Source of the DNA: Nostoc sp. PA-18-2419
GTDB taxonomy: Bacteria > Cyanobacteriota > Cyanobacteriia > Cyanobacteriales > Nostocaceae
Length of the DNA: 64,000 nucleotides
NCBI RefSeq assembly: GCF_005869855.1
Contig: NZ_SZNH01000003.1
Span: forward strand, 186,001 to 250,000
Reading direction: 5' to 3'
This document shows positions 8,460 through 11,645 of this stretch, piece by piece. The position numbers were made by a program, and so were the translations under genes. The notes below the pieces were generated by a model. It had not been told where the DNA came from, searched no databases, and saw only the letters and a program-made list of their open reading frames with translations. How positions within the stretch are numbered: the stretch's first letter is position 1; each line of letters opens with the position of its first letter.

Positions 8460-8576
8460 TTAACATTTAGCTGAGTGTGATCGCAATGGACTGCTGTTAC
8501 AGTAGGCTCTAGCTTCTCGTTCTAGACGTTCAATTTCTCTTTTCCACAACTCAAGCCTGTGTTCTCGGTCTTGTAA
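8460..8576 (-). pseudogene. In-frame coding-like tail after the EH-signature stop
   Basis: Directly after the TAA stop of the EH-signature gene the same frame stays open for 38 codons before TAA at 8460-8462. Its translation begins LQDREHRLELWKREIERL and continues as a charged helix. The high content of Glu, Arg and Leu is unlike random spacer. This suggests that the stop at 8577-8579 is a nonsense mutation cutting off a C-terminal helix, although chance cannot be excluded. Confidence 0.45.
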
Positions 8577-9389
8577 TTAATATATTGTAGGGTTTCTGGA
8601 AGGCTGGGTATTTAGATTAGGCAAAATTCCATTATTTGCAAGCCAGATGCGGGAAAATATCTGCCAAAGAAATTCATGATCGTGCTTATCGGCATCCAGA
8701 CAACGAATCTGCTTGACTGAAAGAGTGGATTCACCAAAAAGGATTTGCTCATTTCTGGAGTTTTTCGGAAATAGACGCGTCTCACTACCTCTTCCACGAA
8801 AGAATTCGACTACAAACCACTCACCAAAATCGAATATACAAACCTCTGTCGGGTCGCTACCATCATCCTCTAACAGATCAACATCACCTTGGATTTGATA
8901 CCCAATGGTAATTTGTAATGTTTTAGGTAACAAGATGCGAAGCCTTTCAAAGCGGTTACTATAATCAGTCCAAAAATCTCTACGTCTACATAGTCGATTT
9001 GACTCGAAGTCTTGCAAATCAAGCTTGTTCAATATGATATTTACTAACTTTTGGAAATCAGTATAATTGATAGCTCCAATCCACTCTCGAAGTCTTTGTC
9101 TTGCTGGATCTGAAAGTTTATACCAATTTTCACCATTTCTATAATTATTTTGCAACCAATCAATCATTAATGAATGATTGGTTGCTATATTATTGGAAAC
9201 ATTAATGAGTAAATGATTAACAGTCTTGATTTGTTGATTATCTGACATTTCATCCAGACAAACTAACAGCCATTTTACCTGCTGGTGATTTGGAGAGCGA
9301 ATTGTAGTGAAATCCGGAGTTATGTCTTCTATAAATTGGCTAAACAATGGAATATAAGCAGGTAAAATGTCTCGGATATTGTTTAGCAA
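8577..9389 (-). CDS. EH-signature (ZorC-like) domain protein, possibly truncated
   Basis: A 270-residue cytoplasmic protein. The C-terminal half resembles the EH_Signature domain found in ZorC of the Zorya anti-phage system: DFWTDYSNRFERLRILLP, then a FGEWFVVEFFRGRGSETRLFP strand pair shortened here, and a closing DHEFLWQIFSRIWLANNGILP. The first ~130 residues are helical and unassigned. ZorC proteins are roughly twice this length. The only usable start is TTG at 9389; the frame stays open upstream to 9446 with no ATG, and a coding-like tail follows the stop. No zorA, zorB or zorD lies nearby. It may be an orphan or a decaying defence gene. The family match is by eye and only moderately certain. 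Confidence 0.5.
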   Translation of the reverse strand: MLNNIRDILPAYIPLFSQFIEDITPDFTTIRSPNHQQVKWLLVCLDEMSDNQQIKTVNHLLINVSNNIATNHSLMIDWLQNNYRNGENWYKLSDPARQRLREWIGAINYTDFQKLVNIILNKLDLQDFESNRLCRRRDFWTDYSNRFERLRILLPKTLQITIGYQIQGDVDLLEDDGSDPTEVCIFDFGEWFVVEFFRGRGSETRLFPKNSRNEQILFGESTLSVKQIRCLDADKHDHEFLWQIFSRIWLANNGILPNLNTQPSRNPTIY

Positions 9390-9974
9390 TCCAGTTCGAT
9401 TAATCTGAGCTTTAATAGGTTTATTGTTCCCAAATATGAAAAGTCAGTTAACTTTTTTACTGAACTTATGCTGATAAAATAAATTTATAATAAAAACTCT
9501 TTTCTAAGCATTGACAAATTCTCTATACTACCGTGTGTATTTAAAACTTACGCACCGAAGCCTAAAACTTAGATTTCCCCAAGCAAGCCTTACAAAAAAG
9601 GTTGGAAGATATGAGTGGGTAAATCTTGAAGTTTAAGGAGGATAAGACCTGAAACTAAGGCTATTCGTTTATTTGACCATCAGCTAATAGATTTTTTATA
9701 ACACCCAGACATAATCAGCCTTATTTCTGAGTTACTTGAGTTTTGATATAAGTTAATTCCGAGTGTTGGGATCTCCCCAAGTAGAGGGAGTACTCCCGAC
9801 AGGCGTTTTCCCTATGAACAACTGCTATCAACCCCTTCGGAGAATTAAAAATTAAAACTGTAAGGGAAAAGGGTAAAGGTTGAATTCAAACTTTTCTCAC
9901 TTACGCTTTTCCCCATTAATCAAATCGTATTGCCCCCTGCTACACTCCCCATGACCTATACCCAATGCCCTAAT
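9390..9974. other. Intergenic, no intact gene
   Basis: 585 nt between two minus-strand genes. The first 54 nt are open in the EH-signature frame. Near 9859-9915 imperfect complementary segments (gtaagggaaaag and cttttctcacttac) could form a hairpin that might terminate the transglutaminase transcript. Nothing else was recognised. Confidence 0.45.
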
Positions 9975-11645
9975 TCAAAAAGGTGGCAATTCTTTAAGAA
10001 TTGTAAATCGAATATGATTAATCGCCAGATCTCCAATGGGAATATCTTCTTTAGTTAACCGCGCACCTTGACTGGTCAAAGTTTCAAAGGAGATACCCTT
10101 ACCAATTTCAATGTGATACCAGCACAAGCCCATAAAAAAGCGTGTAGGATATGGCCCACCGTGACCCACATCATCAGGATTCGATTCCATTGGCAACCAG
10201 CCAAAATTCGGTACGTAGAACTCTAGCCAAACATGATTAAAGTCAGGCTGTAATGGTACACCTTGGTGTTCGGCATTGGGAGGACATTTATACCTACCAA
10301 CTGTGCGACAAGGAATACCATTCAAGCGGCATAGAGCGAGTAAAACACCAACATACTCACCACAGGAACCAACACCGCGTTCTAAAACTATATCAGGTGG
10401 ATCTATGTAGGGTTTAATACCATAAGATAACTCATCATAAACATAATTACGGATATTGTACATTTTCCGTAGCACATTGGTTTCAGAACCAATTGCTTCT
10501 CTGGCAGCACGGCGGACAATGGTAGTATCCATTGCTAAGTCGTCATCGTCCACTAGATAGCGGGTTTGCAATTCTGGTGAAAGTTCAGGTATATTTTCCA
10601 CATCTTTGGGTGTGATGCGATACTTAATTCCCCTAACTTCTAGAAGTGCTTTCCAGCCAAATACATGACGTTCTCCTGGGGTGAGAGCATCAAATTTAAA
10701 TACTGCTACACGTTGCCCATCTACCACTTCTTCGGTGAAGGGTATACCAATGGGTTCAACATGTTTTACTTTTTGACGCTCGGTTTGAGATGGTAAAGCA
10801 ATGCGCCATTCTACGTTTGGTAAATAAACTTCATCTAAGGGAGCTATTTCTTCAGCATAGGACATTTCGATGAGATAGCCATTAGAGAGGGCGTAGCGCT
10901 TATCTGGCTCGTAATGATAATACAGGGGATGAATAAAAGTGCGATCGCGGTAGGTTAGCTCATGATTTGGGTCAGCATTTGGGTTATCGCGGATATAAGG
11001 CTCCTCAGAGGCGTAGGCGACATACAGACTTTGTTTTCCTGTATCGCCATCAAGATGGATTGCTATACCCGTAGGCGATTCAAACGGAGTCAGAACACTG
11101 AATTGAAGTTCTCCAGTTGCCCTGTCCATTGCGTAAACTGTTTGTTCTGTGCGATCACAAATCCACAATATTTCCTCACTAACTGCCAAATTTTCTACTC
11201 CTACTCCAGGGGCAGAAAATCTGGTAATTTCTTTTCGGGTTTCCCGGTCAAAAATCAGAATATAGCCTAACCTTTGACAGCTAATGTAGACTGTTGTTTC
11301 CCAAACAGCGACCCCATCGGCAGCATAAGGCAATGTTACGAAATGTTCCAGACCCAAGGCATTCAGCTTGCACAAATAAACACTGCGATCGCGACTCACC
11401 CACAGAGTATCTTCCCAAATCGCTAAACCAGTGACATCGCAAAATTCCTTAACTTGATGGGGATTGAGAATTTTGCTGTTGTCAGAGGTGGGATCGATTT
11501 CCAGTAGATGCCCTTTTAGACTGTCAATGGCAATCAGTCTATCTTTAATGAAAGCAATACCGCAGAGGGTAGCAGCAGTAAGCGGTCGAATTATCTTTTG
11601 CCCAAACATCTGGCTAGCAGTCAAAGTGGGGAGTACAAAACTCAT
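9975..11645 (-). CDS. Transglutaminase-like protein with N-terminal propeller
   Basis: Residues about 1-230 are repeats of the kind CGIAFIKDRLIAID and DGVAVWETTVYISC, suggesting an NHL/YncE-like beta-propeller. The C-terminal part is a transglutaminase-like cysteine protease fold: GVGSCGEYVGVLLALCRLNGIP carries the catalytic cysteine (about residue 426; only part quoted is essential: SCGEY), FNHVWLEF the histidine (about 471) and MESNPDD the third residue. All three positions are present, so activity is likely, probably on peptide or isopeptide bonds. No signal peptide is visible. The fusion of propeller and transglutaminase is known in cyanobacteria, but its substrate is not. The gene is alone, minus strand. 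Confidence 0.82.
   Translation of the reverse strand: MSFVLPTLTASQMFGQKIIRPLTAATLCGIAFIKDRLIAIDSLKGHLLEIDPTSDNSKILNPHQVKEFCDVTGLAIWEDTLWVSRDRSVYLCKLNALGLEHFVTLPYAADGVAVWETTVYISCQRLGYILIFDRETRKEITRFSAPGVGVENLAVSEEILWICDRTEQTVYAMDRATGELQFSVLTPFESPTGIAIHLDGDTGKQSLYVAYASEEPYIRDNPNADPNHELTYRDRTFIHPLYYHYEPDKRYALSNGYLIEMSYAEEIAPLDEVYLPNVEWRIALPSQTERQKVKHVEPIGIPFTEEVVDGQRVAVFKFDALTPGERHVFGWKALLEVRGIKYRITPKDVENIPELSPELQTRYLVDDDDLAMDTTIVRRAAREAIGSETNVLRKMYNIRNYVYDELSYGIKPYIDPPDIVLERGVGSCGEYVGVLLALCRLNGIPCRTVGRYKCPPNAEHQGVPLQPDFNHVWLEFYVPNFGWLPMESNPDDVGHGGPYPTRFFMGLCWYHIEIGKGISFETLTSQGARLTKEDIPIGDLAINHIRFTILKELPPF

What the first reader, a model, noticed from the sequence alone, without database searches (positions are those of the whole stretch)
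8460..9446. Orphan ZorC-like (EH-signature) gene with an in-frame stop and open ends
The 270-residue protein has an EH-signature-like C-terminal half but no ZorA, ZorB or ZorD neighbours. The same frame continues 38 coding-like codons past its TAA, and also runs open 54 nt upstream with no ATG (only TTG at 9389). Either it is a decaying piece of a Zorya-like defence locus or an independent short EH-signature family used alone in cyanobacteria.
Basis: partly seen in the sequence, partly recalled or inferred. Interest (0 to 1): 0.6.

Follow-up and report, generated by a model that had tools for sequence, protein, structure and literature searches.

The report
Deletion-made stump of a Zorya gene
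The gene is the broken-off rear part of a likely anti-virus gene (zorC), left behind when about 3.6 kb were deleted; intact relatives in other cyanobacteria sit in a Zorya-like gene set that lacks the usual helicase gene beside it and carries a small, uncharacterised fourth protein instead.

Summary
The 270-codon frame (8577-9389, minus) matches PADLOC's ZorC1 model over its C-terminal part (E=2e-116) and Pfam EH_Signature (E=1.5e-25). It is not a short family: 22 of 28 relatives have open frames of 462-490 codons. The nearest relative found (Nostoc S4, flanking genes ~95% identical) has an intact operon between the same flanks: a ~115-aa protein ("F3") - ZorA - ZorB - ZorC. The window carries a ~3.58-kb deletion, junction at 9403/9404, joining the operon's leader to zorC near codon 160. 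The TTG "start" is an internal Leu codon; the codons after the TAA include zorC's own C-terminus. The stump shows no excess of amino-acid changes, so truncation is probably recent. Other lineages show other remnants. Solo use is not supported: two genomes with a lone full-length zorC keep zorAB on another contig. The parent system is the interesting part: in cyanobacteria ZorABC occurs with no ZorD recognised beside it but with F3, encoded first or last; 19 of 20 F3-bearing genomes among 292 also carry ZorC1. Two F3 proteins tested reached no Pfam, PADLOC or NCBIfam threshold. I read the window as a decayed copy of a ZorD-less Zorya variant. Defence activity and F3's role are inferred.

The parts
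8580..9403 (-). 3' part of a zorC gene (parent codons about 160-434 of 469), including the conserved EH-signature region
   Evidence: PADLOC PDLC00618 E=2.1e-116; Pfam EH_Signature E=1.5e-25; the stretch 9403-8495, which runs past the TAA, is 88.9% identical in nucleotides to L017 9987-10895
8577..8579 (-). TAA stop inside the former zorC reading frame; the eight relatives printed have a sense codon there
8460..8576 (-). Continuation of the frame (38 codons and the next stop): former C-terminus of ZorC (about 27 residues alignable with relatives), then a tail most like L018 and L034
   Evidence: translation; homologous C-termini; tblastn of L017 ZorC runs through to window 8496
9403..9404 (-). 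Deletion junction (1-base overlap): about 3.58 kb present in L017 (6405-9987) is missing: F3, zorA, zorB and the first ~159 codons of zorC
   Evidence: blastn of the window against L017; L018 gives a breakpoint within two bases of it
9404..9524 (-). Former leader of the operon (upstream of F3), 94% identical to L017 6283-6404; ends about 15 nt before the F3 ORF start of L017
7552..8274 (-). Flanking TerC-like gene (label recalled, not profiled), also found near the zorC match in 13 of 28 relatives' loci
   Evidence: (family F4)
9975..11645 (-). Upstream flanking gene (transglutaminase-like, label recalled), upstream of the intact operon in L017 too (95.5% nt); found in none of the other 27 loci

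Best explanation
The ORF is a pseudogene stump. An operon leader-F3-zorA-zorB-zorC stood between the transglutaminase-like gene and the terC-like gene, as it still does in the nearest relative found. One deletion with about 1 bp of shared sequence at its ends removed F3, zorA, zorB and the first ~159 codons of zorC, and joined the leader to the rest of zorC. A premature TAA cuts the last ~27 alignable residues; which came first is unknown. (Shown by comparison.) Inferred: the stump is probably untranslated or inert, because it has lost the region just before F3's start, its own start, about half of the predicted helical part of ZorC, and its ZorA/ZorB partners. Inferred for the intact system: ZorAB is a peptidoglycan-anchored, ion-driven sensor in the inner membrane that recruits ZorC when a phage enters; with no ZorD recognised next door, F3 or a helicase or nuclease encoded elsewhere supplies what ZorD does in type I Zorya.
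For: ZorC profiles. Open frames of 462-490 codons in 22 of 28 relatives. Syntenic intact operon in L017 with five flanking genes at 94.7-96.7% nt identity, and breakpoints against L017 and L018 within two bases of each other. ZorA1 and ZorB1 identity of the operon partners in L016, and ZorA1 in L018. F3 and a close ZorA are not elsewhere in the genome. Fold of full-length ZorC: the solved ZorC 8r68 is the top VIA row, Z 10.9, rmsd 10.9 over 336 residues, next row Z 6.4. Other remnants: L021, L026, L098, L099 (zorC pieces), L102/G008 (ZorB 1-85 followed by ZorC 416-472), L110/G027 (ZorA pieces only).
Against: The stump's branch shows no excess of amino-acid changes: 17 synonymous / 20 nonsynonymous, against 20/20 for L017 and 175/197 for 13 comparison branches that include L017 (Fisher p=1.0); and it departs from the purely neutral expectation (p 0.0005-0.012 for kappa 1-4). 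A recent loss explains this, but so would remaining constraint. zorC is also more diverged from L017 (dS 0.27-0.30) than the flanking genes (0.10-0.22), so its history may include recombination. The predicted ZorC model did not show 8r68 among Foldseek's 50 printed rows.
Confidence: 0.94

Rival explanations
1. The stump is a retained minimal protein: the leader drives a short ZorC made of the second part of the helical region plus the EH-signature domain, working alone or with unrelated partners.
For: The frame is open over ~270 codons with no frameshift; no excess of nonsynonymous change; the leader is kept; other lineages also keep C-terminal zorC pieces (L021, L026, L099).
Against: No recognisable ribosome-binding site before the TTG by eye; the TAA removes a predicted C-terminal helix with several nearly invariant residues; 22 of 28 relatives are full length. 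The survey started from the C-terminal part, so C-terminal remnants are over-sampled; the reverse case (ZorA pieces without zorC, G027) and a middle piece (L098) also occur.
Confidence: 0.05
2. An independent short EH-signature family used alone in cyanobacteria.
For: G091 and G252 carry a full-length zorC with no zorA/B recognised beside it.
Against: Those genes are full length, not short, and both genomes have zorA and zorB together on another contig. In the genus, 22 of 24 genomes with a ZorC match have a strong ZorA1 match; the exceptions are the window genome and the remnant G008.
Confidence: 0.01

Closest known systems
Zorya type I (ZorABCD)
   Same: ZorA, ZorB and ZorC of the intact relative L016 match PADLOC ZorA1, ZorB1, ZorC1; gene order A-B-C; the predicted ZorC fold is nearest to solved ZorC 8r68; ZorB keeps an Asp-containing motif near its N-terminus in 21 of 24 ORFs.
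   Different: No ZorD was recognised beside the operon in the loci examined; a conserved ~115-aa extra protein instead, encoded first or last. In the window itself only part of zorC remains.
Zorya types II (ZorABE) and III (ZorABFG)
   Same: Share ZorA and ZorB.
   Different: As described in passages of PMC11890865 and PMC8565338, their further components are ZorE (probable HNH endonuclease) or ZorF/ZorG (DUF3348/DUF2894), not ZorC; F3 matched no PADLOC model at E<=0.01.

Membership tests
ZorC / EH_Signature (window ORF) | Profile match to EH_Signature / ZorC above threshold | tested here: met
   PF15611 90.8 bits against a cut-off of 27.5; PDLC00618 387.6 bits
ZorC / EH_Signature (window ORF) | Full length (~470-500 aa) | tested here: not met
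   Covers profile 185-448 of 495; 22 of 28 relatives have open frames of 462-490 codons
Zorya type I (window) | zorA and zorB present | tested here: not met
   No match of L017 ZorA or ZorB in the window; the ZorA1 model finds only a different operon at E=1.1e-12 in G000. ZorB was not sought genome-wide
Zorya type I (intact relatives) | ZorA (MotA-like) present | tested here: met
   PDLC00597 E=2.5e-266 in L016 and 7.3e-273 in L018; ORF family in 24 of 28 loci
Zorya type I (intact relatives) | ZorB (MotB/OmpA-like) with membrane-helix Asp | tested here: met
   PDLC00609 E=2.6e-72 in L016; motif with Asp in 21 of 24 ORFs, not matched in L003, L004 and L024. That this is the ion-pathway Asp is inferred from its position
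Zorya type I (intact relatives) | ZorC fold | tested here: met
   8r68 top row, Z 10.9, rmsd 10.9 over 336 residues, next Z 6.4; helical repeats can inflate Z, and Foldseek did not list it in its 50 printed rows
Zorya type I (intact relatives) | ZorD helicase next to zorABC | tested here: not met
   None recognised in the ORF neighbourhoods of 28 + 18 loci (only some large neighbours were profiled; several loci are cut by contig ends). One of several ZorD1 models, run on 12 genomes of the genus, gives only partial matches, none closer than about 75 kb to zorC on the same contig, and rings in 8 of 14 control genomes
Zorya type I (intact relatives) | Anti-phage activity | not testable with these tools
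   Needs an infection assay

The most novel reading that the evidence does not exclude
Cyanobacteria carry a distinct Zorya variant, ZorABC plus the ~115-aa protein F3, in which F3 takes ZorD's place as partner or adaptor of ZorC; its copies are repeatedly lost or broken, and the window is one such loss. Its ZorA tail varies in length by whole ~80-residue modules (one to three copies in most strains looked at).
Probability: 0.6. Interest if true: 0.65.

Novelty: new variant of a known kind. Interest (0 to 1): 0.45.

Why it matters
The stump itself is an ordinary relic. Its value is the parent system. For Zorya I from Serratia marcescens, deletion of each component abolished the protection (PMC11890865, passage), so ZorABC without ZorD should not work unless something replaces it. 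A conserved companion that travels with ZorABC, at either end of the operon, is a concrete candidate and would allow a direct test of what ZorD contributes. I found no description of a ZorD-less Zorya or of such a protein in the listings of six searches or in the passages seen of three papers; no paper was read whole, most subscription papers are not held, and the 2025 Nature paper on Zorya (recalled) was not seen.

Tried and rejected
Sequencing or assembly artefact: the junction lies inside a 423-kb contig, its two parent sequences share about 1 base there, and F3 and a close ZorA are not elsewhere in the assembly; raw reads were not available.

ZorD hidden in the neighbourhood: the 949-aa helicase after zorC in L012 and on the HK-01 plasmid scores best as DpdE, then DrmD. 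Seven other large neighbours match Pfam domains of aconitase, Clp/AAA ATPase, M1 peptidase, Na/H exchanger, S15 peptidase, 6-phosphogluconate dehydrogenase and EF hands. ORFs of 700 aa or more in L002-L029 were judged from their first 50 residues only, apart from those profiled. The remaining neighbours were not profiled.

Fold of F3: confident model (pLDDT 91.6), but no PDB match with E<=0.001; the best VIA row is a two-helix stretch of a CBS-CP12 protein, Z 7.8 over 49 residues, which I do not read as a relationship. Sequence search of ZorC against PDB chains gave nothing credible: best E 0.48 for one sequence, 0.032 for the profile. F3 in phage records: no match; in plasmids: one record. 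PHROGs was not searched.

Whether the divergence of zorC from L017 reflects recombination or faster change was not resolved. A first family guess, PDLC00626, turned out to be another ZorC1 model; it matched none of 53 genomes and none of the controls.

Full report
Observation. The minus-strand frame at 8577-9389 is as described: 270 codons from a TTG, a TAA, 38 further open codons, and 18 open codons upstream without ATG. It is a true ZorC fragment: PADLOC ZorC1 model PDLC00618, E=2.1e-116, profile positions 185-448 of 495; Pfam EH_Signature PF15611, E=1.5e-25, 90.8 bits against a cut-off of 27.5. The genome holds one copy.

What the relatives look like. A scan of genome contigs with the stump gave 28 loci. 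In 22 of them the stop-to-stop frame is 462-490 codons; the others are L003 (370), L010 (406), L018 (269), L021 (200), L026 (174) and L029 (126, at a contig edge). The stump aligns with the latter part of the full protein. Its TTG is an internal Leu codon. The 38 codons after the TAA contain the ordinary ZorC C-terminus, with a tail like that of L018 and L034.

How the stump arose. Five flanking genes (TerC-like, ndk, speA, transglutaminase-like, P-type ATPase; labels recalled) are 94.7-96.7% identical in nucleotides to L017, Nostoc sp. S4. There the operon between them is intact: ORFs of 115 codons (F3), 696 (zorA), 217 (zorB) and 480 (zorC). Window 9404-9524 matches the leader just before F3 (94%). 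From 9403 on it matches zorC from about codon 160 (88.9%). The shared base gives a deletion of about 3583 bp relative to L017 with 1 bp overlap. L018 gives a breakpoint within two bases of it. The stretch just before the F3 start is gone, and by eye nothing resembling a ribosome-binding site precedes the TTG.

Is it decaying? Polarised against other sequences of the survey, the window branch carries 17 synonymous and 20 nonsynonymous changes, L017 20 and 20 (8 sites ambiguous). Thirteen comparison branches, L017 among them, total 175 and 197. So there is no excess of amino-acid change (Fisher p=1.0), and a wholly neutral branch is disfavoured (p 0.0005-0.012). Most of the branch therefore evolved under constraint; a recent truncation is the simplest reading, and residual function is not excluded. 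Apart from the TAA there is no frameshift or stop. zorC is more diverged from L017 (dS 0.27-0.30) than the flanks (0.10-0.22), which may reflect recombination.

Other remnants. In the genus, 24 of 53 genomes have a ZorC match. Of these, 22 also have a strong ZorA1 match; the exceptions are the window genome and G008. G027 has ZorA pieces without ZorC. G008 keeps the end of ZorA, ZorB 1-85 and ZorC 416-472 in a row. L021, L026, L098 and L099 keep pieces of zorC, and G205 keeps part of F3. L018 and L100 have zorC split into two frames. Because the first scan used the C-terminal part, C-terminal remnants are over-sampled. Two genomes (G091, G252) have a full-length zorC with no zorA/B recognised beside it, but both have zorA and zorB together on another contig.

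The parent system. In the 28 loci the conserved ORF families are F3 (22 loci), ZorA (24), ZorB (24) and ZorC (28); 21 loci show all four, and some of the others are cut by contig ends. The L016 proteins match ZorA1 (E=2.5e-266), ZorB1 (2.6e-72) and ZorC1 (5.9e-175). In 292 genomes of the phylum, ZorC1 is found in 27, two of them weak. I first fetched 18 of the 25 clear ones: F3 adjoins ZorABC in 13, first in 9 and last in 4 (L095, L096, L097, L100); three more pieces fetched later show F3 last in L108 and first in L111 and L112. F3 itself is found in 20 of the 292 genomes, 19 of which have ZorC1; with 25 clear ZorC1 genomes this has p about 1e-23 without correction for relatedness. Clear ZorC1 carriers without an F3 match are G172, G091, G252, G094, G284 and the window genome. 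Two F3 representatives (L016, L020) gave no PADLOC model at E<=0.01, no Pfam model above its cut-off (best HTH_1, 13.7 bits against 26.6) and no NCBIfam model at E<=0.1. The F3 model is confident (pLDDT 91.6; three helices, three strands, two helices) but has no credible PDB match.

ZorD. No ZorD was recognised beside the operon. In 12 genomes of the window's genus one ZorD1 model finds only partial stretches (at most about 190 of 817 positions), none closer than about 75 kb to zorC on the same contig; the same model rings in 8 of 14 control genomes, so I take these for general helicase cores. Other ZorD models were not run, so a diverged ZorD, or one acting in trans, is not excluded.

ZorC by fold. 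The full-length L017 model (pLDDT 78) has the solved ZorC 8r68 as its first VIA-align row (Z 10.9, 336 residues, 12% identity, rmsd 10.9); the next row is Z 6.4. Plain Foldseek did not show it in its 50 printed rows. The stump keeps residues from about 160 to 434, that is, the later helices and the EH-signature region, without the last helix.

Likely mechanism. From PMC11890865 (passages seen): ZorA and ZorB form a MotAB-like 5:2 complex; the ZorB Asp is crucial for defence; detection is said to depend on peptidoglycan binding by ZorB; the complex is proposed to recruit nuclease components such as ZorCD; and each component of the Serratia type I system is needed. The cyanobacterial proteins fit the ZorAB-ZorC part. 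The nuclease/helicase step has no obvious gene; F3 or a trans-acting helicase is my inference. On the mobilizable Nostoc HK-01 plasmid the cassette sits beside genes scoring as DpdE/DrmD and DrmMI/type IIG, which fits a defence island.

Verdict. The finding is a dead or dying zorC stump; that part is ordinary. The system it came from fails one defining feature of type I Zorya (a neighbouring ZorD), so I do not file it as type I, but as a Zorya variant. Nothing here shows that it defends against phage.

Noticed in passing
L002-L028, zorA genes (e.g. L004 6345-8852, L016 6684-8852): The tail of ZorA contains an ~80-residue module present once (e.g. L002, L012, L017, L018), twice (e.g. L009, L011, L013-L016, L025, L027) or three times (L004, L005), so tail length varies between related strains by whole modules; L022 gave no match to the module.
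   Followed up: partly
L101 5755-12593 (G000:C18, same genome, outside the window): A different operon: 379-aa protein, 1088-aa protein with Pfam Tubulin_2 (E=1e-108), 549-aa MotA/ZorA-like and 215-aa ZorB-like protein. Similarly weak ~550-590-aa ZorA-like matches occur in other genomes of the genus.
   Followed up: partly
L016 9-6092: Upstream of the cassette in Nostoc carneum lie a 582-aa protein without a Pfam match (GTPase-like by eye), a 986-aa protein weakly like SrfB (E=1.3e-5, below the cut-off) and a 364-aa protein without a match.
   Followed up: no
L018 9521-9999 (Nostoc sp. NMS9): zorC at the same chromosomal site is split into two frames by extra sequence, with about 30 codons present on both sides: an independent disruption.
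   Followed up: no
window 9525-9702: About 160 bp upstream of the old leader are absent from the near relative L017.
   Followed up: no
L082 (plasmid AP018320.1, Nostoc sp. HK-01): The F3-ZorABC cassette sits on a mobilizable plasmid beside a DISARM/Dpd-like gene set.
   Followed up: partly
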